Source: Gorsachius magnificus (Eukaryota; Chordata; Aves; Pelecaniformes; Ardeidae). Taken from it: a stretch of 64,000 nucleotides of DNA. Position 1 is the first letter of the stretch, and every line of letters starts with the position of its first letter. Below, piece by piece: positions 27,687 to 53,400 of this stretch. The notes beneath the pieces are model-generated. The model saw nothing but the letters and a program-made list of their open reading frames with translations. It had not been told where the DNA came from and ran no database searches. A program made the translations under genes and the position numbers. The stretch is from positions 38,772,507 through 38,836,506 of the forward strand of contig CM067086.1 of NCBI GenBank assembly GCA_034008185.1, read 5' to 3'.

Positions 27687-27691
27687 ATAAA
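27687..27691. repeat. target-site duplication, left copy (ATAAA)
   Basis: The 5 bp directly before the 5' LTR match the 5 bp directly after the 3' LTR (34550-34554), the signature of one retroviral integration. Confidence 0.9.
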
Positions 27692-28246
27692 TGTCCTGGT
27701 TTCGGCTGGGATAGAGTTAATTTTCTTCACAGAAGCTAGCATAGTGCTGTGCTTTGGATTTAGTACTAGAAGAATGTTGATAACACGCTGATGTTTTTAG
27801 TTGTTGCCAAGCAGTGCTCAGACTGCTCAAGGACTTTTTGAGCTTCTCCTGCTCGGCCAGGTGCATAACAAGCTGGGAGTACAGCACAGCTAGGACCCAA
27901 ACTGTCCAAAGAGCTATTCCATACCATAGAACGTCATGCTCGGGGGGGTTGGTGGGTCGGTCGGTCGCTCGGGTACTGATCGCTGCTCGGGACGGGCTGG
28001 GCATCGGTCGGCGGGTGGTGAGCAATTGCATTGTGCATCATTCATTTTGTATATTCTGTATATTTTGTTATCATTCTCATTATTACTATTATTATTATTT
28101 TCTCTTATTAAACTGTCTTTATCTCAGCCCTCGGCTCTAACCTTTTTTTCCCCTTCCCGATTCTCTCCCCCATCCCACTGAGGGAGGGGGGGGAGTGAGC
28201 GAGCGGCTGCGTGGTGCTTAGTTGCCAGCCAGGTTAAACCACAACA
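27692..28246 (+). repeat. 5' LTR
   Basis: 555 bp, beginning TGTCCTGG and ending CACAACA (TG...CA ends). It holds a poly(A) signal ATTAAA at 28107-28112 with a T-rich downstream stretch, a GC-rich block of GGTCG units at about 27951-28015 and a pyrimidine-rich end. Against the 3' LTR I count five substitutions plus indels of 1, 3 and 1 bp. No unambiguous TATA box is visible; tgtatattctgtatatttt at about 28050-28068 is the nearest candidate but lies close to the poly(A) signal. Confidence 0.95.
28107..28112 (+). promoter_or_regulatory. poly(A) signal ATTAAA in 5' LTR
   Basis: A common variant of AATAAA, repeated at the same place in the 3' LTR (34411-34416), where it would end the proviral transcript. 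Confidence 0.6.
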
Positions 28247-28254
28247 GTCCTTTT

Positions 28255-28272
28255 TGGCGCCCAACGTGGGGC
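28255..28272 (+). promoter_or_regulatory. primer-binding site, tRNA-Lys1,2 type
   Basis: The 18 bases tggcgcccaacgtggggc match the primer-binding site I know as complementary to the 3' end of tRNA-Lys1,2. It starts 8 nt after the LTR end, a longer gap than usual. ERV-L elements are named for a leucine tRNA primer, so this pairing of ERV-L-like pol with a lysine site is noteworthy. Confidence 0.8.
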
Positions 28273-28393
28273 ACGAAGGGCTTGAGATAACGACAGAGTA
28301 ACCAGAGTATATTAAGGAATTTATATCTGTTAAATAGTTGTGGGTTGCAATTTGATTCATTTGTTCTTGATCTTAGCTTATCCGATCTGCACC

Positions 28394-30403
28394 ATGCTCC
28401 CTCCTTTGCTGTACTTGTTAAAAGTTGGTGTTGGTTTTTGCAGTTTGTTATGCTCTGCGGTGACCAGACATGTTTTGCTTGGGAAACTTGTTATTAAAAC
28501 AATGACCTTGAGCTTTATCTGGTATTTGGGTTTCATGTCGAAGTCTGTACTGCACTTTGGGTACCACCTTGCGGGGAATATTAGCAATTATACATGGGAC
28601 TCTGAAAAGTTTGTTCTGGAGGAAATACAGAATGGCACTTTTTCTGCCTTCTTTGATGATGTTTCCTCCTTCACTACAATAACTTTTCAGTATCTTGAGC
28701 ATCCTTGGATAGTTAAGGTATATCTATTGATATCTATTTGGAATATTGTTTCAGTTTTGTCCAAAGTTTGTAAGCAACTTAATAATACCATCCAGATGTC
28801 TGCCCCAGGGCTGGATAGTTATGAGTGGAAGGGTATTTGGGGTAGTATGGGTAAATGCCTAGAACGATGGGCACCTCCAATGTTTTGGAAATTCACTCCT
28901 GAACAAGTGCAGAATCCTGAAAAACTAGTAGAGTATTTGGAAAAGGTATGCTGTCACCCTGGCAATTCTAAGCAAACACAAATCACTGCAATGTGCTGGG
29001 GCCTGGCCCATGCTTACCGAACCCTGTTCAACATGATTCAACACATCCAAAGGGAACAGAAAGTCTCTGGATCTGATGATAAGGCCTCAGCCACTGCAGC
29101 TACTCCAACCCCGGCCACAGCCACTGCAGCTACTCCAACCCTGGCCACAGCCACTGCAGCTACTCCAACCCTGGCCACAGCCACTGCAGCTACTCCAACC
29201 CCGACCACAGCCACTGCAGCTACTCCAACCCTGGCCACAGCCACTGCAGCTACTCCAACCCCAGTGATATGCACTGCGGCTACTCCAACGAACCAGCCCG
29301 TGCCAGTATCAGTCGCCCCTATACAAAAGAAGAAATCTTGGAAGCGAAAGTCAACTCGTTTAGAAAGGGAGGATGAAAAAGCGGGGCCATCACAAGGGGA
29401 GGAGGAAGAGCTCATAAACGAGACAGAAACCACCAGATCCCTATCCTTGAGTGAGCTGCGAGATATCCGAAAAGATTTCAGCCGTCGTCCAGGTGAGCTC
29501 ATTGTCACCTGGCTACTCCGATGCTGGGATAATGGGGCCAACAGCCTGGAACTGGAGGGTAAGGAAGCCAAGCAACTAGGATCCCTTTCTAGGGAAGGGG
29601 GCATTGACAAAGCAATTGGAAAAGGGACACAAATCCTCAGCCTCTGGAGGCGTCTACTGTCAGCCATGAAGGAAAGATATCCCTTCAAGGAAGATGTCAT
29701 ATGTCGCCCAGGTAAATGGAACACTGTGGAGAAAGGCATCCAGTATCTGAGGGAATTGGCTGTCCTGGAAGTGATTTATAGTGACCTGGACAATGACCAG
29801 CTGCCCAAAGATCCAGATAGTGTCCAGTGCACACGACCCATGTGGCGGAAGTTGCTACGTAGCGCACCAACATCATTTGCAAACACATGGGCAATGATGA
29901 GCTGGGAAACTGGACGGGGACCAACAGTGGATGAAGTGGCTGGCCAGCTCCGCGAATATGAAGAAAGTATCTCTTCCCCCTTTGTTTCGGCTGTGGAGAA
30001 ACTGTCCCGGAAGTTTGAACGACTCGAAAAGCATATGTCCTACTCCCCTCCTGTACAGACCAGTATCTCAGCCATCAGAAGTAAGCGCCCTTCTGCTCAA
30101 GAAAAAGAATATCGAGGGTACACACCACGGGGCACTCTATGGTTTTACCTGCGTGACCATGGAGAGGACATGAGGAAATGGGACGGAAAACCTACCTCGG
30201 TCCTAGAGTCACGGGTACGTGAGTTGCAAAGGAAAACAAGCACAAAAGGGGGCTCTTCCAAGAAACTTGTTGCTCCAATTTACAGAGACTGGGACGACGG
30301 TAGTTTTTTCAGACAAAATAGAAGGGCTGATCTTAATTCTGATTGTGATGAAGGAACTTCTGACTCATACATACAAACCATGAGCAACAGTGACCAGGAT
30401 TAG
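28394..30403 (+). CDS. ERV Gag-like polyprotein
   Basis: The frame from ATG 28394 to TAG 30401-30403 is open for 669 codons. I chose this ATG because it lies in an acceptable context (caccATGc); the frame is open further upstream but without an ATG. Residues 1-23, 27-48 and 104-126 are hydrophobic, with N-glycosylation sequons at N62, N65, N80 and N130, so the N-terminus looks membrane-directed. Residues about 234-300 are Ala/Thr/Pro-rich, from a 30-bp tandem repeat. From about residue 340 the sequence is helical and Gag-capsid-like (e.g. LIVTWLLRCWDNGANSLELE). I see no CCHC zinc knuckle. The stop is in frame with the protease frame that follows, suggesting readthrough. Family membership comes from position; no Gag motif proves it. 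Confidence 0.85.
   Translation: MLPPLLYLLKVGVGFCSLLCSAVTRHVLLGKLVIKTMTLSFIWYLGFMSKSVLHFGYHLAGNISNYTWDSEKFVLEEIQNGTFSAFFDDVSSFTTITFQYLEHPWIVKVYLLISIWNIVSVLSKVCKQLNNTIQMSAPGLDSYEWKGIWGSMGKCLERWAPPMFWKFTPEQVQNPEKLVEYLEKVCCHPGNSKQTQITAMCWGLAHAYRTLFNMIQHIQREQKVSGSDDKASATAATPTPATATAATPTLATATAATPTLATATAATPTPTTATAATPTLATATAATPTPVICTAATPTNQPVPVSVAPIQKKKSWKRKSTRLEREDEKAGPSQGEEEELINETETTRSLSLSELRDIRKDFSRRPGELIVTWLLRCWDNGANSLELEGKEAKQLGSLSREGGIDKAIGKGTQILSLWRRLLSAMKERYPFKEDVICRPGKWNTVEKGIQYLRELAVLEVIYSDLDNDQLPKDPDSVQCTRPMWRKLLRSAPTSFANTWAMMSWETGRGPTVDEVAGQLREYEESISSPFVSAVEKLSRKFERLEKHMSYSPPVQTSISAIRSKRPSAQEKEYRGYTPRGTLWFYLRDHGEDMRKWDGKPTSVLESRVRELQRKTSTKGGSSKKLVAPIYRDWDDGSFFRQNRRADLNSDCDEGTSDSYIQTMSNSDQD
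29091..29290 (+). repeat. 30-bp minisatellite inside gag
   Basis: Six full 30-bp units of the type ccactgcagctactccaacc plus ccggccacag, then a degenerate partial unit. Each encodes ten residues rich in Ala, Thr and Pro (TPATATAA). As 30 is a multiple of three, copy-number change keeps the frame. Confidence 0.95.
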
Positions 30404-33400
30404 AGGGGCCCTGCCTCCAGCCAGGTGGAGGAAAGGGACAACAGGGTTTACTGGACTGTGTGGATTCGATGGCCTGGCATGTCAGACCCACAGAAGTATA
30501 GAGCTCTAGTAGACACCGGTGCACAGTGTACTCTAATGCCATCAAGCCATATAGGGGCAGAATCCATTTGTATTTCTGGAGTGACAGGGGGATCTCAAGA
30601 GCTGACTGTATTGGAGGCCGAAGTGAGCCTAACCGGGAATGAGTGGCAAAAGCACCGCATTGTGACTGGCCCAGATGCTCCGTGCATCCTGGGCATAGAC
30701 TACCTCAGGAGAGGGTATTTCAAGGACCCAAAAGGGTACCGGTGGGCTTTTGGTATAGCTGCATTGGAGGCAGAAGAAATTAAGCAGCTGTCTACCTTGC
30801 CTGGTCTCTCAAAGGACCCTTCTGTTGTGGGGTTGCTGAGGGTTGAAGAACAACAAGTGCCGATTGCCACCACAACAGTGCACAGGCGGCAATATCACAC
30901 CAACTGAGACTCCCTGATTCCCATCCATAAGCTGATTCGTCGACTGGAGAGCCAAAGAGTGATGAGCAAGACTCGCTCACCCTTTAACAGTCCCATATGG
31001 CCAGTGAGAAAGTCTGATGGAGAGTGGAGACTAACAGTAGACTATCGTGGCCTGAATGAAGTTACGCCACCGCTGAGTGCTGCCGTGCCAGACATGCTAG
31101 AACTTCAATACGAACTGGAGTCAAAGGCAGCCAAGTGGTATGCCACGATTGATATTGAAATGCTTTCTTTTCAATCCCTTTGGCAGCAGAGTGCAGGCCA
31201 CAGTTTGCTTTCACTTGGAGGGGCATCCAGTACACCTGGAATCGACTGCCCCAGGGGTGGAAACACAGCCCTACCGTTTGCCATGGACTGATCCAGACAG
31301 CACTGGAAAAGGGTAATGCTCCAGAACATCTGCAATATATTGATTACATCATTGTGTGGGGCAATGCAGCAGAAGAAGTTTTTGAGAAAGGGAAGAAAAT
31401 AGTCCAAATTCTTCTGAAAGCCGGTTTCGCTATAAAACAAAGTAAAGTCAAAAGACCTGCACAGGACATCCAGTTTTTAGGAATCAAATGGCAAGATGGA
31501 CGTCGTCAGATTCCAATGGATGTGATCAACAAAATAACAGCCATGTCTCCACCAACTAGCAAAAAGGAAACACAAGCTTTCTTGGGCATTGTGGTTTTTT
31601 GGAGAATGCATATTCCAAATTACAGCCAGATTGTAAGCCCTCTCTACCAAGTGACCCGGAAGAAGGATGATTTCAAATGGGGCCCTGAACAACGACAAGC
31701 CTTTGAACAAATTAAATGGGAGATAGTGCATGCAGTAGCCCTTGGGCCGGTCTGGGCAGGGCAACATGTAAAGAATGTGCTCTACACCGCAGCCAGGGAG
31801 AATGGCCCTACCTGGAGCCTCTGGCAGAAAGCACCAGGGGAGACTCAAGGCCGACCCCTAGGGTTTTGGAGTCGGGGATACAGAGGATCTGAAGCCAACT
31901 ATACTCCAACTGAAAAAGAGATATTAGCAGCATATGAAGGGGTTCGAGCTGCTTCAGAAGTGATTGGTACTGAAGCACAGCTCCTCCTGGCACCCCGACT
32001 GCCGGTGCTGGGCTGGATGTTCAAAGGGAAGGTCCCCTCTACACATCATGCAACTGATGCTACGTGGAGTAAGTGGGTCGCACTGATTACACAACGGGCT
32101 CGAATAGGAAACCTCAGTCGCCCAGGAATCTTGGAAGTGATCATGGACTGGCCAGAAGGCAAAGATTTTGGAATATCGCCAGAGGAAGAGGTGGTGCGTG
32201 CTGAAGAAGCCCCGTTATATAATAAACTGCCAGAAAATGAGAAGCAATATGCCCTGTTCACTGATGGGTCCTGTCGTCTTGTGGGAAAGCATCGGAGGTG
32301 GAAGGCTGCTGTATGGAGTCCTACAAGACAAGTTGCAGAGACTGCTGAAGGAGAAGGTGAATCAAGTCAGTTTGCAGAGGTGAAAGCCATCCAGCTGGCT
32401 TTAGATATTGCTGAAAGAGAAAAATGGCCAGTGCTTTATCTCTATACTGACTCATGGATGGTGGCAAATGCTTTGTGGGGGTGGTTGCAGCAATGGAAGC
32501 AGACCAACTGGCAGCGCAGGGGCAAACCCATCTGGGCAGCCGCATTGTGGCAAGATATTGCTGCCCGGGTAGAGAACCTGGTTGTAAAGGTACGTCATGT
32601 AGATGCTCATGTACCCAAGAGTCGGGCCTCTGAAGAACATCAAAACAACCAGCAGGCAGATCAGGCTGCTAAGACTGAAGTGGCTCAGGTGGATCTGGAC
32701 TGGCAACATAAGGGTGAATTGTTTCTAGCTCGGTGGGCCCATGTTACCTCAGGCCATCAAGGAAGAGATGCAACATACAGATGGGCTCGTGATCGAGGGG
32801 TGGACTTAACTATGGACGCTATTGCCCAGGTTATCCATGAATGTGAAACGTGTGCTGCAATCAAACAAGCCAAGTGGTTAAAGCCTCTCTGGTATGGAGG
32901 ACGGTGGCTGAAATACAAATATGGAGAGGCTTGGCAGATTGATTATATCACACTCCCACAAACCCGCCATGGCAAACGCTATGTGCTCACCATGGTGGAA
33001 GCGACAACCGGATGGTTGGAAACATACCCTGTGCCCCATGCCACTGCCCGGAACACTATCCTAGGCCTTGAAAAACAAGTCCTATGGCGGCATGGCACCC
33101 CAGAAAGAATTGAGTCAGACAACGGAACTCACTTCCGAAACAGCCTCATAGACAAATGGGCCAAAGAGCATGGCATTGAGTGGGTCTATCACATCCCCTA
33201 TCACGCACCAGCCTCTGGGAAAATTGAACGATACAATGGACTGTTAAAAACTACACTGAAAGCAATGGGTGGTGGAACATTCAAACATTGGGATACACAT
33301 TTAGCAAAAGCCACCTGGTTAGTCAACACTAGAGGATCTTCCAACTGAGCTGGCCCTGCCCAATCAAACCTCTTACGTACTGTAGAAGGGGATAAAGTCC

Positions 33401-33588
33401 CTGTAGTGCATGTAAAAAATATGCTGGGGAAGACAGTCTGGGTTTCTCCTGCCTCAGGCAAAGGCAAACCCATCCGTGGGATTGCTTTTGCCCAAGGACC
33501 TGGCTCTACTTGGTGGGTGATGCGGAAGGATGGGGAAGTCCGATGTGTACCTCAAAGGGATTTGATTTTGGGTGAAAATAGCCAATGA
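30404..33588 (+). pseudogene. ERV protease-RT-RNase H-integrase (pro-pol), broken
   Basis: Continues in the gag frame after the UAG. Protease: LVDTGAQCTLMP with the catalytic Asp codon at 30512-30514. Reverse transcriptase: first catalytic Asp in TIDI (31151-31153); the active-site box reads YIDY at 31336-31347, where YXDD is expected. RNase H: TDGS (Asp 32263-32265) and LYTDSW. Integrase: HX4H and CX2C zinc ligands (about 32730-32853), then Asp 32941, Asp 33118 and Glu 33226 with 35 residues between the last two (D,D-35-E). Breaks: in-frame TGA at 30905-30907, net loss of one base at about 31157-31160, in-frame TGA at 33346-33348. The natural stop is at 33586-33588. Both TGA codons could come from CGA by CpG decay. 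Confidence 0.93.
30414..30477 (+). promoter_or_regulatory. candidate readthrough stimulator (hairpin / pseudoknot)
   Basis: Ten nt after the gag UAG, cctcca (30414-30419) pairs perfectly with tggagg (30426-30431). The loop bases ccagg (30421-30425) are complementary to cctgg at 30473-30477, so an H-type pseudoknot could form. Gammaretroviruses use a pseudoknot 8 nt after a UAG for the same purpose. Function here is inferred. Confidence 0.45.
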
Positions 33589-33991
33589 ACTGAATTGTAT
33601 AATGTTAATTGCTGTGTAATATAGTATGTCATCATTTTTACTATTGCTGTATGTCATATCAATGGTATAGCAGTAGGAATCACCCAGATTAAGAAGAATG
33701 AATTTTGAAGAAACTGAGGAAGTGCAGCGGATGGAACCAGAACTGACTTCAGCATGCGACAACCCAACACCGGACCCCATCTCTCCTGCCCTGAAAGACT
33801 GTTACAACAGATGAAGCCCAAAAGCATGGACTAGATGAACCCAATGGACATTTCAGAGGGATGGTCCATAGACTAAGGGAATGATATCTGTGTATGTACC
33901 AAAAAGATGAGAAAATGGTGGTGATTAATTGGAATGTATTGTATGGGTAGGACCTAAGCATGACGTAAATGGTATAGAATAAGGGGTGGAA
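33589..33991 (+). other. ERV 3' non-coding region and polypurine tract
   Basis: About 400 bp with no open frame and no env remnant. The purine-rich aaggggtggaa directly abuts the 3' LTR and is the likely polypurine tract priming plus-strand DNA synthesis, although a T interrupts it. Confidence 0.75.
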
Positions 33992-34549
33992 TGTCCTGGT
34001 TTCGGCTGGGATAGAGTTAATTTTCTTCACAGAAGCTAGCATAGTGCTGTGCTTTGGATTTAGTACTAGAAGAATGTTGATAACACGCTGATGTTTTTAG
34101 TTGTTGCCAAGCAGTGCTCAGACTGCTCAAGGACTTTTTGAGCTTCTCCTGCTCGGCCAGGTGCATAACAAGCTGGGAGTACAGCACAGCTAGGACCCAA
34201 ACTGTCCAAAGAGCTATTCCATACCATAGAACGTCATGCTTGGGGGGGGTTGGTGGGTCGGTCGGTCGCTGCTCGGGTACTGATCGCTGCTCGGGACGGG
34301 CTGGGCATCGGTCGGCGGGTGGTGAGCAATTGCATTGTGCATCATTCATTTTGTATATTCTGTATATTTTGTTATCATTCTCATTATTGCTATTATTATT
34401 ATTTTCTCTTATTAAACTGTCTTTATCTCAGCCCTCGGCTCTAACCTTTTTTCCCCTTCCCGATTCTCTCCCCCATCCCACTGAGGGAGGGGGGGGAGTG
34501 AGCGAGCGGCTGCATGGTGCTTAGTTGCCAGCTGGGTTAAACCACAACA
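33992..34549 (+). repeat. 3' LTR
   Basis: 558 bp, TG...CA ends, about 99 % identical to the 5' LTR. Differences: a C/T plus one extra G near 34241, a 3-bp insertion near 34270, A/G near 34390, one fewer T near 34450, G/A near 34514 and two substitutions near 34533. Its poly(A) signal is ATTAAA at 34411-34416. Confidence 0.95.
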
Positions 34550-45387: not shown

Positions 45388-48204
45388 TAGACAAAAGAGT
45401 GAACTGTTTAGGAATCTGCTTTGAGTGAACAAAGATAAACAAGATTCTTGATGTGTTATCAAGGAAAACTCATACAGAATCTCATTCTCAGTTTATTGGA
45501 ATTGAGAACAGTCCTGGATAGAACCATCATCAAGAAATTTTCAGAAACAGAATTAGACACTGCCAATATATGTAATATGTAGATAGACTGGGGGTTACTT
45601 CTTTTTCCAGCAGCCCCTTCACCTTCATATAAGCAGTCTCCAAACACCCTGTTAAATGTCCAAAGGGTGTGGAGTTTGAATATGGTGGGTTTTGTCCTCC
45701 AGAAAGTGGAAATAATTAAGATGACCTGCATAGATTCCCAGATGAGTTAATAAAGATGCAATCTAATTAAATTACAGACCTTGCATCTTGTCTTTCCTTT
45801 CATGTCTGGGAAAAAAAAACCCTAATTCTTGTACATTTTGTATGCTCCCCTGAAGAGAAAGAGTTCCATTACATTTTAATGGCTACTTTCTGCAAACTTT
45901 GCCTTTGAGTCTTTGTAAATCTATGTCATTCCTCTTTTACTGAGCCAGTCAAAAGATATGCACCTTGTAATGAAAGATGTGCCCTTTGAGTGATTTCACA
46001 AGAACACTATCCTTTATCATGCTGTTGTGTTAGGGTGCAATTGTGGGCAAGATGGAGCATAGTCATACTGATTCCAGTGTCCTTGCTACCCAGGGGTTGC
46101 TTTCGGAGTGCTAAAGAGATGAAAGAGGCAATCAAGAAAGCGATTCCATTTCACTCTCTAGTGAAGGAACATTCAGCTTGTTTTTGTGCAGTGTGTTTCT
46201 GATGACTGCTGACACATGAATAAGAGAGACCTTAAGGCAAGTCCACATCCTCTCATAAGATGTAACAAAGGCCACAAGGCTGTCTCACTTTTTTCTTGCC
46301 ATCTGACTTCATTCCACTGGCATTTTAAGTAAAGCACCTCATAAGAGCAAAATTTGTTACAAGGAAAAAGTAGAACTAAGCCAGGAGGAAAAACTCTTCA
46401 TAAAAGAGGAGGTACAGGAACTTGGCAGGGATATAGACAGCTGCATTTTTGTCCTGCTTGCTTAATAGTGTAAACAACTTTTGTTGGTTAGCTTTGTATG
46501 TGACCATTCAGGAAACCCTCTATATAGACAATGTATCTTGTCAACCATTTCCTGTGTGTGTAAAATGTAATTCGTCACCCTGTGCTGCCTTGGCAGCAGC
46601 CTTGTAAAGAACACACTGAATTAATGAATATTTCATAAAGATGTGATTTATTAGCATTCCTCTGCCTTTGCTTTGAAAAAGATCCATCCTTCAAAAGCTG
46701 AGCACACAAAAGCTATCTGCAGGTATGGAAAGTAGACTGAACCCCCTGAAGACAAAACCAGCATTTCTTAATAACCTCTGGGCCATATAGACTTTAGAAG
46801 AGATATTTAGTCAATCTTGTATTAATATTTTAGATGGTAAAGAAATGCAGTGCTAAGCTATTATACCGAATTTGGCTGTCAGAACCATGAGCTATCACAA
46901 AAAAAATTTATTACCAACTTGGAATTTTTCAGTTTCATATATTTTGATGAACATATAACAAAATAGGTCACAGCATAGTACAAATACCTCTGGGCCTTCT
47001 GAGCTACCCGCTTTTCCATGCTGCTATAGAGCACTTTTCCTTCCCAGAACCCACCAGCAAATCTGTCATATGCACAAATTATGAAGTTGCATGTACCTGT
47101 ACTTCTATCCTAACCACTAATGCCCCCAGGTATTATCCAATACAACAACTGCTGTAACAAGTGTTCTTTTCCTATAATAGCAAATATTTATTGTGTTCAA
47201 TTAATATGCATGGTCCCGCATCTCACAAAATGACATTGTTCCTTTTCTGACAGTCTGCAGACTCTGGCACATGTTGCAATACAGGCAAAAAATAAACCAG
47301 AAAACCAAATGTGGTTTTGGTATCTCAGGCAGCTGGTGCTTTCTACTGGTGGTATAAAAATACATTTTAACTGCATTCAATGCAACACACGGTTTCAAAA
47401 AGTATTTGCTTTTTTTTTCTCAACAGACATCCCTTATTTGCAATGCTAGTTCAATCCCAGTATTCCTGTGCATTTGATCCACAACACCTGTTACATCCAC
47501 CTGGTTATTACAGCTGGATTATTAAGCTCTTATCTTCATCTGTAGGAAATCATGCTTTCAGGTTGGGAGGCCTTTTATTCTGCGAAGATGGTAAATGCTG
47601 TATAATGTCAGACCATTACGAAACATCACAGAAGTACTTCACAATAAGAATCATCCATTACGATTGTATTTAAATCTCCTAGACTAAAGCTTTCTTGTGT
47701 CTCTTTTCTCCAGTGACTGGGAGATGCATAGCTCCAATGCATAGCTTTGGAATGTGAGATCAAAGGAGAAAGATGCATGTGCATGGCAAGTTAGAAGGAC
47801 AGGGTGATTTTCCCAGGTGATAGATGATGCTTCTGTAGTGATTTCTTTTAAATCTGTCTTAATTAGTTAATGTAATAATTTTCAGTGGAAGAATTACCCA
47901 CTGTGTGTCTTTAGACTTCAGGGAGACAAATATGTATGGGAGGGGAAAGAGGCTTATGTTACAGGAGTAACACTGCAAACAGGAAAAACTAAAGAACTCC
48001 CGAGGCATACTCAAGCATAGTATGATATACATGAGCCAAGGAGCCAGCAGGACTGAATGAATCTGTAGAGTTTTTTTCAGAACCTGGAAAAGCTTTCTCA
48101 CTTGCCAAGCTATGAATCTAAGCCCAAAATGTTAAGGGAAAATATGGAGGTACTCTTCCTAGAAGCTGGCTCTTGCACTGAGGCATTGAACTAGGAAAAG
48201 TATA

Positions 48205-49206
48205 CCTGTAATCCATCAAGAGTGTCTACCAGGTATCATGCATAGCTCAGATAAAGCTTATGAAATGCTCAATCAAATATTGGTATGTGATGTGTGTAGA
48301 GAGATGAAAAGCTATTGCATATTATCAGAAGTTGACATTGTCAGACATGTCAGAAGAAAAAGAAGATATTTTCTTGAAGCTCTCTTCACCCTCTTTTAGG
48401 AGCTATTCCCTGGAGTCTTGATGGGTATTGTTGGTTTATTCTATGATCACCAAAAAAGCAGGAAAACTCTGGTTGTGGTCATGTGACATTATTTTTTCTG
48501 CAGACACAATCCTTTTCCTAATGCAGAGGTCGAAACAGTGGCAGGAGTTGTATTTCACTGAGTACCAAAGGTAGAGTAACATACTGCCAGACAAGGGATA
48601 AATTTATTTATCCTAGTTTTTAAGGATTTGTTGAACTGAATGGAGTAAAGCAAATAGTTAGGCTGAGCGATTCGAAGGGACACTTAAGTGCAGGTTACTA
48701 ATATGTTCAAACAGCAAGTGATTAAGTTACATTTTTGCTGTACTTACCCTCCCTAGATAACCTGGCATATATTCTCACTTAATCACCTATCTAAATGAAA
48801 AATCAGAACATTTTTATATTATTAGACATTTTGGGAAGGCTAGCACTGAATAAGAAGCTGAAGCAGTCATTGGGATATACTCAGTGGGTCAATAATAATT
48901 TACATTACAGGAGGAATTTGAGCAGTATCTGGTCAAGGAATTCCAAAGACAAGTTATAATAGAACCTTATGTAAACACTTAGAGCTTGAAGTCTTAATTC
49001 TTGCTAAATATCAGCAGATGCAGAATTGTTGGGAAAAGTCTTTCAAAGTGGTGGGAAAGGTTAATAACATTACTAAGAAATTAAATAAAGAATCCTTCAG
49101 GAACAATGTCATACCAACAAGGGTGTATGTCAGTAGGTTAAAATCCTGTCACAGGTGGGAGGTGGTTGTTAACTTCAGATGCAGCAGGGAGAAGGGAATT
49201 CAAGCT
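48205..49206 (+). pseudogene. gypsy integrase relic
   Basis: N-terminal zinc region: QECLPGIMHSSDKAYEMLNQ then DVCREMKSYC (48205-48330). Core: ELFPGVLMGIVG (the expected catalytic Asp is Gly here), SRKTLVVVM, NAEVETVAGVVF, an eroded DQG-type box near 48590 and AERFEGTLK (about 48664-48690). The usual YHPQTDG stretch before ERF appears to be deleted. C-terminal domain: YNRTLCKHLELEVLILAKYQ, WEKSFKVVGKVNNIT and VYVSRLKSCHRW up to about 49165; this part is open from 48922 to 49206. Stops at TAG, TGA and TAA codons show it is non-functional. Assignment rests on my knowledge of Gypsy integrases, not on a search. Confidence 0.7.
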
Positions 49207-50113
49207 GAGCATAACATAAAAAAGTAAAGGTTGAAGAATCAGTTCTAACTGGTTTTATGATTTTTGGTATCATCACCAAAGAGTGGTGCAGAGTCAAACA
49301 TGCAGGTTTTGTAGTCTTTTGTGAAGCAGATACATAAGAAGTAGGAAAAATGTCAGAGTAGGGGTTTATAACTACATCTTTGAATTCTCAGATACAATTT
49401 GGATGCAGAACTGTATCTGAGAATATTGTGAGGAAATAGTAAGATAAGGTTATATGTAGATCACTGGAGAGTCAACATGCCACTGTGACTGATGTATTAC
49501 TTTTTTTGATGGCCCATCAGATTACGTAGAGAAAAGAATGCCAGGAGACTGGATTAAACTGGAAAAGACTCTTTCCATAGAGGAAAAATAAAACCTGTTT
49601 TGATCACTGATTTGATACAAGATTATGTTAAAAAGCTGACTGGTCCTTCAACTGTATCTTGAGGCAGTTCAGCTAAATGCTGGCTGGATTACACAGTCAT
49701 GACGAACTCGCACTGATGACATCACCACCTTCTGAAACTGGAAACTAAAAGAAGTGCGGAATTATTTGGGGAAACCTACCTACAGAGTTCACACTGTTCA
49801 AAGGGAAAATCTGTCTAATGTAGTTCAAAAATAACTTGGGAGATAAAGGAAGAAATGTATCCCAGTCCCTTAAATGTGAAGGCCATTATAGATTGACCCA
49901 AATGCCTAAACTCAGTCTTTCATGGGACTTTCAGGATATTACAGAAGGTTTGTGGAAAATTCCAAAGACTTTGTTGCTCCTATTACTGCACTGTGTAAAA
50001 AATGGAAGGCTAACAAGATAATTCTGGATGAAGCTTTTCAGAGAGCCTTTAAGCAGGTAAAGGCATTCTTGGCTCAATATTTCTTGTCCCATATTTGCTA
50101 TCCCAAAATCTGA
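49207..50113 (+). pseudogene. gypsy reverse transcriptase relic
   Basis: The first 470 bp are too decayed to read. WLDY at 49681-49692 may be the eroded YLDD box, followed by HHHLLKLE (with two stops before it) where Gypsy RTs have the H-L-x-H-L stretch. Then KICLM and F-K-x-x-LG near 49806-49840, PSPLNVKAIID followed by a stop where Trp is expected (49861-49896), QSFMGLSGYYRRFVEN (from 49913, shifted frame) and AFQRAFKQVKAFLAQ to 50077. Spacing from the integrase end to this box is what a complete RT would need. Confidence 0.7.
49384..49424. repeat. 13-bp perfect inverted repeat
   Basis: attctcagataca (49384-49396) and tgtatctgagaat (49412-49424), separated by 15 nt. It lies in the unreadable RT part of the gypsy relic. 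Confidence 0.9.
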
Positions 50114-50439
50114 GAAAATATTTGAGCACATCTCCAATATTTGAGATGTGCTTATGAAATTTGGGAAAGACGGAGTAGAAAAAAAAAGCCACCTTGTTAG
50201 TTTTCTTAAGAAAAAAATACCTGAGCAAAAGTTTTCCATTATAAAGAAAATATACTTTTAAGCAGCAGAACCATTATCTGATCTATTGTAAATGTAGGCA
50301 TCTCTCATACTAGTCCTCTTTAATCTGGCTTGACAGAATGAAAGGAACATATTCTAAATTGCTATAATAGAGCCTTCTGCTTCAGAAATTTAATATGAGA
50401 GTTGTTCATATCAAAGGTAAAATGTGCATATCAAAGTAG
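50114..50439 (+). pseudogene. gypsy RNase H relic
   Basis: KDGVEKKSHLVSF (from about 50166) and IPEQKFSIIKKIYF (to 50261) fit the start of a Gypsy RNase H. Then, in the main frame, HYLIYCKCRHLSY, WLDRMKGTYSKLL (50326-50364) and SLLLQKFNMRVVHIKGK (50371-50421) fit its second half. In-frame stops are at 50311, 50365 and 50368. RNase H is the last pol domain in elements with integrase first; nothing further was recognised after 50439. Confidence 0.7.
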
Positions 50440-53400
50440 TAGATTTTTTTTTTTGGCACTTTTCAAAATAGTAAATGGGATGTTTACATTTAAATTATGC
50501 AAATGTATTTTTTCTTTTCTTTCTGCCTTAACCTTTGGCTTGTGTCAAGAGAAACTTCAGGATAGTTGGGAAAAATCAAAGCACTCTAATCTCTACCTGT
50601 GTCATCTTTAAAATAAATATATAGACCACTTAACAATGTTCAATTTTTTGTACAGGTCTGAAGACTACATGGAGAATAGGAAAGGAAATCCTTTAGAAAC
50701 CTGTAGAGGTGTCTATAAACACTTAATGTAGCACATTGGTATGATAGAAGCATTTCCTAGTGTCTCACGCTAGCCACAGAATCCCCAATAAGCAATAGAA
50801 GAGAGGGAAGACTGTTTGAACTTCAAGGGTCTCTACCAATTCATTATAAATGCACAACATATTTGTATTGAAAAAGAACCAGTTGCCTCAATTATTACCA
50901 TAAATGTTAACGCCAGTCAAACATATCTCAAAGATGTCAGATAGTACTGCCTAGACAGAGGATGCTTTTTTTTTTCTGATTTTTATTCCACCATGCAGTT
51001 ACCTATATGTAAGTTTTATTGCCATATTATGACTACCCACATAGATATTATTATTGTTTCTGTGACTTAATGAGTCCATCACAGTACAAATATGTAAATT
51101 TAGCATATTGACTTTCTACCAAAAAAATGCTCTTTTTTTCTTACATAGCTTAAAATGTGTGGCTTTACATATTGCTAAAACTCAGGGATTTCAGTCAAAG
51201 CATTTTGAAGGCCTAGGTCTGGTGCTTTATGATCCTACTGCTCTGCTGTCTGCCCTGTTTCTCTTCTGAAGGGTTATCTATATGTTGCCTGGACAGTCAG
51301 CCCTGTGTTCCAGAGTACTCACGACCCCAGACTTTGGTCATCTCTGATATCAACTGCTTTCATCAGCATTTGCCTTGAGACACTAGTCTGTAAAATATGG
51401 CTGCTGAAAAAACAGACCTGTTCTCCATTATTCACTTTTGCTAAAGAGGCAGAAATTTGTGCAGAAGATCAGGGTGAACATGGCATGGAAGACACATCTT
51501 AAACTGCAGCCACTGAGTCTGCCACATCTTGCTTCTCAGTTACACTGGGTATGCAACTTGAACACAGGAGGGAAAGAGGAAATACAGTCAAAGCATATTC
51601 ATGTTGTTTGTTGTTTGCACTTTGGGGCTTTTTTCTTTTAATGATGTCACTATTCCTATGGTTTGTAGTATTTGCTTATTTGCTTTGTCTATGTCGAGTG
51701 AATGGAAACTCATCCCCATGTTTTGAGCTTCTTAAGGCAACTGCAAAACCTAAGCACAGCGGGCTTACTGAAGGATGACATTTTAGCCTTAATGCCCAAT
51801 TTTCTGCATCTCAGTGATTTAAAACAAATCCTTTTTATGCAGCTTTTAAAGAAAGTTATTCTGGACTTTACCAACATGAATACTGACTTGAACAGTTGAA
51901 TAAAAATATTCTTATGGACTGGTAAAAATTTGTCTTTGGATGTTCTTTTGATGTTTTCTTTTTGTATGTGTTGGGAACGTGGCATTAAGTAATGAATATA
52001 AATAGCCACACTTGGTGAAGCATACAGAATAATTTAGCAAGCAGTCTGAAAATTTTCATACATTATCATCTTAAAAATATATTGCAGAAAAAGGGAATAA
52101 GCACAAGGATAATGTACATGTAGTTTGTGAATGCATAAAACTTACTGTTAAATGGCAATTGTTGATTTATGAAAAAAAAAATTAAAGGATTTTTAACTCT
52201 TCTAAATTAATTTTTTTTCCTTTTTTTTTTTAATTTAAATGTATAGGTCTCAACTCAAAACAACCACAGGGCTCCAGGTAGGAATATGCCTCTGAAAATG
52301 CTTATAACTATCTTTACTGTGTAAATTAAATGTATTCAAGAAGCTTCATTTGAAGGCAGTCCTGAACGTCTTTTTTTTTCCTTTTTTACAAATAAATAAA
52401 AGCCCATGAAAGGGATGGATAAGTCATTCTTGAGACTGATGCTCTGTTGAGTTATACAGTAAGGAAATAATAGAAAATTACAAGTAATATCATAGGCAAA
52501 GTGTCCACAAATGTTAAAACTAGTGAACCATCAAAAAGCCCTCATCCACGTCTTCCTTTATATTGCAGACGTGATGGTTGCAATTCATTTTGGTTCATGT
52601 TGTACATGTAAAATCTGGTTCTCTACAGCTGAGAACCACTATAAATACCTTTTGTAGTAAATTATTTTTAGGAAAACAATCATTTCACTTTTTTACAAGA
52701 TGCTTCAAGATGTCAAGAATCTTCGTCTTTTTACACATTTTTATTGTTGTCTGAATATATTAGAAATCAGAGAATGAAGAAGTGTTACAAAACTGAGACC
52801 TCAAAATAGGTTGCATATATGAGGTGAAATTCCCCAACTGTTCACAACATTATACATCCAGATCAAATTTAGAGGCAATTACAGAGCAATTTTTGTCCCA
52901 AAAACTCTATTATTATTTATCTTATGCTAGTGCACTAGGTTGTAAATACATTTCTAAAATTTGACCATTATGTTAAAAAGTTTGGCTGGCACAGAAAGAA
53001 AAGATACTATAAATAGTACCAGAATAGATACTCTGGAACACAATGAGCACAGAAAAAGAAAATATGAATCATAATTAGAAAGGAATTTTCAGTACCGTGT
53101 CCAATCACTGAAAGTAAATACTTCCATGGAAATGCAGAGCAGCCCAGGTGGCAATTGTCAAGCTATTATCAAATTATTATCAAGCTTCAGTAGAACTTTT
53201 TGACCTTCCAGGAGACTGGAATACAATCTCACAACACATGACTGAGAGTTATCATCCTTGTAGGAGAAGCAGTTCCAACCCAGTTAGAGTGAGCTATTGA
53301 GTTAACAACAACAAAATAGGAAAACTCTTCTTGGAGTCCACAGACATAGGAAATCAGAGGAGTCAGAACAGTAACAGTGGCCAATAAATATTACCAGAAT

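What the first reader, a model, noticed from the sequence alone, without database searches (positions are those of the whole stretch)
48205..50439. Fossil Ty3/Gypsy pol in a bird-like genome
Translated blocks at expected spacing (DVCREMKSYC, VETVAGVVF, AERFEGTLK, WEKSFKVVGKVNNIT, GLSGYYRRFVEN, WLDRMKGTYSKLL, LLLQKFNMRVVHIKGK) fit a Ty3/Gypsy polyprotein. Ty3/Gypsy elements are rare and mostly undescribed in birds, whose repeats are dominated by CR1 and ERVs. A standard repeat library could miss this because of its decay.
Basis: partly seen in the sequence, partly recalled or inferred. Interest (0 to 1): 0.82.

Follow-up and report, generated by a model that had tools for sequence, protein, structure and literature searches.

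The report
Decayed Gypsy element, integrase before polymerase
A bird-sized genome carries the broken remains of an old jumping gene, most likely of the Ty3/Gypsy group, whose enzyme genes appear to lie in an unusual order, which hints at a lineage known from fish, frogs and lizards.

Summary
The locus (48.2-50.4 kb, + strand) is a decayed pol relic with 43-48 stops per frame. The reverse-transcriptase connection (49,910-50,077) is well supported: 0 of 100 shuffles reach its profile score, and the only two PDB matches at E <= 10 are both Ty3 (0.11 and 0.54). The RNase H end is colinear (0 of 100; 4 of 200). The stretch read as integrase C-terminus (48,991-49,206) has a second copy 10.5 Mb away (E 2.8e-4). 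The space between fits an RT N-terminus weakly (11 of 200; 2 of 200 anchored), as does the same place in the second copy (2 of 200; 12 of 200 with a shorter model). That is the Gmr1-type order, but clade is untested, the integrase core is weak (5 of 200), and no LTR, gag or protease was found. Gypsy fossils are known in other amniotes: a new member of a known kind, probably Gmr1-like.

The parts
48232..48318 (+). Integrase zinc-finger-like stretch (GIMHSSDKAYEMLNQILVCDVCREMKSYC), frame 1
   Evidence: By eye; part of the 48,190-48,990 integrase-core profile test, 5 of 200 shuffles as good; no Pfam hit
48400..48558 (+). Integrase core-like stretches (ELFPGVLMGIVGLFYDHQKSRKTLVVVM; AEVETVAGVVFH), frame 1, stops inside
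   Evidence: By eye; same profile test; own-genome hits other than self only at E 0.3 or worse
48662..48688 (+). AERFEGTLK, read as the region of the integrase catalytic glutamate, frame 2 (frame change against its neighbours)
   Evidence: Coordinates; assignment by eye only
48922..49224 (+). Stretch read as integrase C-terminus (101-residue open frame), frame 1
   Evidence: Second copy at G000:C6:49303372-49303581(-), E 2.8e-4 genome-wide; DNA match E 1e-6 in a search of three fetched loci, 60% over 209 columns; protein score 102 against a maximum of 46 in 1000 shuffles. The name integrase is by eye
49190..49909 (+). Inferred decayed N-terminal part of reverse transcriptase between integrase-like part and connection
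   Evidence: Anchored profile fit 2 of 200 shuffles; without the end next to the connection 11 of 200; local test 15 of 100. SPLNVKAIID at 49,864-49,893 fits the RT end by eye
49910..50077 (+). RT connection stretch (TQSFMGLSGYYRRF...QVKAFLAQ), frame 2
50326..50421 (+). RNase H C-terminal stretch (WLDRMKGTYSKLL...LLLQKFNMRVVHIKGK), frame 1
   Evidence: Profile path ends at model 740 = window 50,421, 0 of 100 shuffles; 4 of 200 in the other form

Best explanation
This is a dead, frameshifted pol relic of a Ty3/Gypsy-type LTR retrotransposon whose pol ran integrase - reverse transcriptase - RNase H, the order of Gmr1-like elements. In life it would have copied its RNA to DNA with RT/RNase H and inserted it with integrase (inferred from known Gypsy biology). 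It inserted long ago, in an ancestor of this bird-like genome, and decayed; it now encodes no pol protein. Shown: the RT connection, a colinear RNase H end, a second copy of the stretch read as integrase C-terminus, and no convincing integrase downstream. Inferred: that all blocks are one insertion, that the upstream blocks are integrase, that the RT N-terminus fills the gap, and the Gmr1 affinity, which rests on domain order alone.
For: RT connection: 0 of 100 shuffles; among 254 overlapping window segments scored with the connection-RNase H profile it ranks next after the two that cover the window's young ERV (33.4; next other place 27.0 near 15 kb); only Ty3 chains hit at E <= 10 among 177,635 PDB sequences. 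RNase H colinear. C-terminal stretch has a second locus. IN core at 48,190-48,990: 5 of 200; at the canonical downstream place 92 of 200. RT N-part between them: 2 of 200 anchored, 11 of 200 unanchored. The 640 nt after the same stretch of the second copy also fit RT: 2 of 200. The gap to the connection (about 690-700 nt) matches the length of the profile's RT N-part (model 345-562, 654 nt). Gmr1 order 'integrase upstream of reverse transcriptase' is stated in PMC8220671 (passages).
Against: No retroelement Pfam family in any piece (below-cut-off DUF2533 only). The integrase reading of the C-terminal stretch is by eye: of the 25 tblastn rows shown (of 65) none matched it in frame 1, two matched 49,007-49,093 in frame 2 (E 0.52, 1.5), and one put an integrase N-terminal region at 51,295-51,468, the canonical side (P0040, E 0.32; the profile there is no better than 79 of 100 shuffles). 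The local IN score at 48.2-49.2 kb (2 of 100) came from that frame-2 stretch. In the unguided scan of 254 segments neither the RT N-part nor the IN core of 48.2-49.9 kb is among the top 12 for its profile. RT N-part tests used a distant (mag-type) profile and followed a local test that was not significant (15 of 100). The second-copy test followed a local hint (20.5, equal to an unrelated place), a shorter model gives 12 of 200, and its integrase core is not significant (20 of 200). The connection stretch alone scores about the same against 26 fetched loci, mostly taken as ERVs (79), as against Gypsy proteins (78). No LTR, gag, protease or SCAN-like gag was found.
Confidence: 0.6

Rival explanations
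1. Two unrelated fragments: the 3' end (integrase) of one canonical Gypsy element happens to lie just upstream of an RT/RNase H fragment of another, so the order is accidental; or the upstream part is not integrase at all.
For: Each block is only a fragment; the integrase name rests on eye and a 5-of-200 test; the RT N-part between them is weak (11 of 200; 15 of 100 local).
Against: Same strand, spacing that fits RT length, anchored fit 2 of 200, and an RT-like fit in the same place of the second copy (2 of 200; 12 of 200 with a shorter model).
Confidence: 0.25
2. A decayed endogenous retrovirus (pol order RT-RNase H-IN), not a Gypsy element.
For: The connection stretch scores as well against 26 fetched loci taken mostly as ERVs as against mag-type Gypsy proteins (79 against 78, BLOSUM62). 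One weak tblastn row puts an integrase region downstream (51,295-51,468, E 0.32).
Against: PDB, which also holds retroviral RTs (recalled), returns only Ty3 at E <= 10; the downstream place is no better than shuffles for integrase (79 of 100; 92 of 200); the integrase-like part lies upstream.
Confidence: 0.1
3. Chance similarity in AT-rich DNA; no retroelement.
For: Pfam finds no retroelement family; protein database searches with the RT piece found no relative.
Against: 0 of 100 shuffles for the connection and for RNase H; the C-terminal stretch has a homologous second locus.
Confidence: 0.03

Closest known systems
Gmr1-like Ty3/Gypsy elements (cod Gmr1, Ciona and an annelid: PMC8220671, passages; frog: PMC4131045, passages; pufferfishes: PMC11117352, passages)
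   Same: Integrase upstream of RT, as stated for Gmr1 in PMC8220671
   Different: Here only a broken partial pol is seen; no LTR, gag or protease; clade membership not tested, since no Gmr1 protein was obtained
Canonical Ty3/Gypsy elements (Ty3; the proteins P0001-P0120, mag-type by recall)
   Same: RT connection and RNase H are homologous
   Different: Canonical integrase lies after RNase H; no convincing one found there
Pre-amniote Gypsy protein fossils in human (PMC9004415, passages; that study also used alligator and turtle) and MamGyp / X1_LR-X4_LR repeats of human (PMC5753468, passages)
   Same: Highly decayed Gypsy relics in an amniote genome
   Different: A bird-sized genome; age and orthology of this one not established; order of domains in those fossils not examined here

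Membership tests
Ty3/Gypsy (Metaviridae) | Retroelement reverse transcriptase (connection part) | tested here: met
   0 of 100 shuffles; maximum of 100 shuffles exceeded in tblastn
Ty3/Gypsy (Metaviridae) | RT of Gypsy rather than retroviral type | tested here: inconclusive
   Only Ty3 in PDB at E <= 10, but score ties with loci taken as ERVs; no tree made
Ty3/Gypsy (Metaviridae) | RNase H after RT | tested here: met
   Colinear end at 50,421; 0 of 100, 4 of 200; similar scores elsewhere in the window
Ty3/Gypsy (Metaviridae) | Integrase with zinc finger, DDE core and C-terminal domain | tested here: inconclusive
   Core 5 of 200; C-terminal stretch replicated at a second locus but named by eye; no integrase Pfam hit
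Ty3/Gypsy (Metaviridae) | Flanking long terminal repeats | tested here: inconclusive
   Only two short pairs (26 and 29 nt) in 44-55 kb; decay could hide LTRs
Gmr1-like clade | Integrase encoded upstream of RT | tested here: inconclusive
   Favoured: with no convincing integrase downstream; depends on the integrase reading, which is itself inconclusive
Gmr1-like clade | RT/RNase H/integrase sequences group with Gmr1 in a tree | not tested
   No Gmr1 protein was obtained; protein searches returned nothing
Gmr1-like clade | Gag related to the SCAN domain upstream | tested here: inconclusive
   No Pfam hit (SCAN or other) in the three forward frames of 45.9-48.3 kb; genome-wide SCAN search did not complete
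Retroviridae (ERV) | Pol order RT-RNase H-integrase | tested here: not met
   Integrase profile downstream no better than shuffles: 79 of 100, 92 of 200; one weak tblastn row there (E 0.32)

The most novel reading that the evidence does not exclude
Bird-lineage genomes keep relics of Gmr1-like elements, the group whose gag is thought to have given rise to the SCAN domain (KRAB zinc-finger proteins with SCAN are reported absent from chicken), so the donor lineage once lived in bird ancestors too.
Probability: 0.4. Interest if true: 0.62.

Novelty: new member of a known kind. Interest (0 to 1): 0.45.

Why it matters
A survey of five birds reports low retrotransposon diversity, in contrast to reptiles and fish where Gypsy and other LTR clades are found (PMC5486457, passages), and KRAB zinc-finger proteins with a SCAN domain are described as present in mammals and lizards but absent in frog and chicken (PMC4592553, passages). 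A Gmr1-ordered relic with a sibling copy would show that this lineage was once active in bird ancestors, and would give fixed fossil loci to date its loss.

Tried and rejected
Rejected: canonical Gypsy order (integrase profile at 50,420-51,600 no better than shuffles, in spite of one weak tblastn row there, E 0.32). Chance. Other own-genome hits of the integrase-core piece (C2:29841316 E 0.3, C8:38487417 E 0.93, C3:50956953 E 4.25) and of the RNase H piece (C2:150271166, E 8): treated as chance. C2:132459147 (E 3.3): its DNA gives no match to the region better than E 1.1.

Led nowhere: Pfam on the pieces; Rfam; phages; viral contigs; PDB with two integrase pieces and the RNase H piece; protein database with the RT piece (9 candidates, none at E <= 0.01; 2 candidates, none at E <= 10). 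DNA search of the own genome finds only the locus itself plus a 41-nt inverted match inside it. Dropped rows: the Gypsy profile used 66 of 120 proteins (those of 600 residues or more, whose script stopped later on an error and was finished). tblastn: 25 of 65 rows were looked at.

Several looks at one question: the RT N-part was tested locally (15 of 100), then anchored (2 of 200), then without the end next to the connection (11 of 200). Frameshift, gap-extension and stop penalties differ between and 99/101/109. The second-copy test followed a hint and gave 2 of 200 with one model length, 12 of 200 with another.

Full report
What is there. The three frames of 48,200-50,440 hold 43, 45 and 48 stops and the longest open stretch is 101 codons, so no pol protein is encoded here.

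RT and RNase H. PDB sequences (177,635 distinct) give only two matches at E <= 10 to the 49,910-50,110 translation, both Ty3 RT, at the homologous place, E 0.11 and 0.54. A second decayed element of the same genome (G000:C2:27,674,576; Pfam RT_RNaseH_2 at 3e-15) led to 148 Gypsy-type proteins at E <= 0.001 among 168 candidates, 120 listed; six of those listed bear the name K02A2.6-like, all from fish, and the 15 best are 58-66% identical (the clade name mag is recalled). With these 120 as queries, tblastn against 47,500-51,500 puts its best match at 49,913-50,077 (P0026, E 0.001 for a search space set to 64 kb), and 22 of the 25 rows shown, of 65, start at 49,910-49,919. The best score, 32.3 bits, exceeds all 100 dinucleotide shuffles (maximum 30.3; reversed sequence 24.1), and 25 queries reach 23 bits against a shuffle mean of 2.4 and maximum of 19 (reversed 9). 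A profile of 66 of the 120 proteins finds 49,910-50,077 as the best place outside the window's ERV (5.3 bits, E 0.025). In a frameshift-tolerant alignment the connection scores 33.4 (shuffles 11.6 +/- 1.6, 0 of 100) and RNase H 21.0 (12.9 +/- 1.6, 0 of 100), the latter ending at model position 740 = window 50,421, colinear with the connection. In a scan of 254 overlapping segments of the window the connection comes next after the ERV; another place near 15.0 kb scores 27.0, and scores near 21 for RNase H also occur elsewhere (near 18.6 kb, 20.9), so RNase H is supported mainly by its place.

Gypsy or ERV? The connection stretch by itself does not decide. Its best score is 79 against 26 loci fetched (mostly taken as ERVs; I looked at few of them) and 78 against Gypsy proteins (BLOSUM62), and 97 against 98 (BLOSUM45), where the 97 belongs to L015, Gypsy-like by eye. 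In the own genome the stretch finds itself and 148 weak matches (E 0.23 to 9.1; 150 of 476 candidates scored), aligned from query position 1 or 2 to 51-56, as expected if they are RT-connection places. The Ty3-only PDB result and the upstream integrase-like part speak for Gypsy.

Integrase. The stretch 48,922-49,224 finds one other significant place in 1.18 Gb: G000:C6:49,303,372-49,303,581 (-), E 2.8e-4; a third candidate has E 3.3. The two agree at 31% over 70 columns; DNA identity is 60% over 209 columns, E 1e-6 in a search of three fetched loci; 126 of 195 ungapped columns are identical, Jukes-Cantor distance 0.48; the protein alignment scores 102 against a maximum of 46 in 1000 shuffles. 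Reading it as the C-terminal domain of a Gypsy integrase is by eye: none of the 25 tblastn rows shown matched it in frame 1, two matched 49,007-49,093 in frame 2 (E 0.52 and 1.5), and Pfam gave only below-cut-off unrelated families. The core region 48,190-48,990 fits a mag-type integrase profile better than 195 of 200 shuffles; the earlier local score for 48,200-49,230 (2 of 100) ended in the unrelated frame-2 stretch.

Order. The integrase-like part lies before RT. At the canonical place after RNase H the profile does no better than shuffles (79 of 100; 92 of 200), although one tblastn row puts an integrase N-terminal region at 51,295-51,468 (P0040, E 0.32, stops inside). The roughly 690-700 nt between the C-terminal stretch and the connection are about as long as the RT N-part of the profile (654 nt) and fit it weakly: local 15 of 100, anchored to the connection 2 of 200, without the 80 nt next to the connection 11 of 200. 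Negative stretches gave 50 and 129 of 200 and 158, 171 and 200 of 200; two positive controls gave 0 of 200 in both calls. In the unguided scan these places do not stand out. In the second copy, the 640 nt after the C-terminal stretch fit RT at 2 of 200 (12 of 200 with a shorter model), with control stretches at 24 and 49 of 200, and its integrase-core place at 20 of 200; I ran that test after a local scan had shown a hint there. Taken together the order integrase-RT-RNase H is likely but not proven. It is the order given for Gmr1 elements in PMC8220671 (passages; the original description, Goodwin and Poulter 2002, seen only in a reference list).

How it worked. An element with these enzymes would copy its RNA by RT/RNase H and insert the DNA by integrase (established for LTR retrotransposons; inferred here). 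This copy is dead. If the two copies decayed at about 2e-9 per site per year (recalled avian rate), 0.48 would correspond to roughly 120 million years or less, since part of the difference may predate insertion; this is an inference with a wide margin.

Known and new. Gypsy fossils older than the amphibian/amniote split are reported in human by a study that also used alligator and turtle (PMC9004415, passages; its main text as searched does not contain the word chicken). Human repeats include MamGyp and related families (PMC5753468, passages). A survey of five birds reports low retrotransposon diversity and names Gmr1 in the passage I saw only as a reference element (PMC5486457, passages). Gmr1-like gag is the proposed source of the SCAN domain (PMC3424704, passages; PMC3406341, passages), and KRAB zinc-finger proteins with SCAN are said to be absent in frog and chicken (PMC4592553, passages). 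My paper searches (listings, with passages of eleven papers opened) showed no report of Gmr1-like relics in birds, but the library lacks most subscription journals. Filed as a new member of a known kind, with Gmr1 affinity probable from order alone.

Noticed in passing
window 27690-34549: A young endogenous retrovirus, + strand: LTR-like direct repeats 97-100% identical about 6.3 kb apart, with RT/RNase H and integrase matches at 30.4-33.3 kb.
   Followed up: partly
window 29083-29289: Tandem array of a 30-bp GC-rich unit, 6.9 copies, 92% matches, inside the ERV.
   Followed up: no
L029 (G000:C2:27669700-27679600), about 4.8-5.2 kb: Another decayed Gypsy copy; its RNase H piece is 58-66% identical to the 15 best-matching proteins, several from fish (E down to 1e-24).
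   Followed up: partly
L043 (G000:C11:21646500-21656400), reverse strand: A further decayed pol relic, Gypsy-like by eye, with an RT end and a connection stretch that aligns to the window's without a gap; the RT part fits the profile at 0 of 200 shuffles.
   Followed up: partly
L002 (G000:C4:76398866-76402156): A long open pol-type frame (1221 codons reported) with protease-, RT-, RNase H- and integrase-like parts by eye; a young element or a domesticated gene, not resolved.
   Followed up: no
window 49384-49424: A 41-nt stretch that matches itself inverted at 86%, so it could form a hairpin.
   Followed up: no
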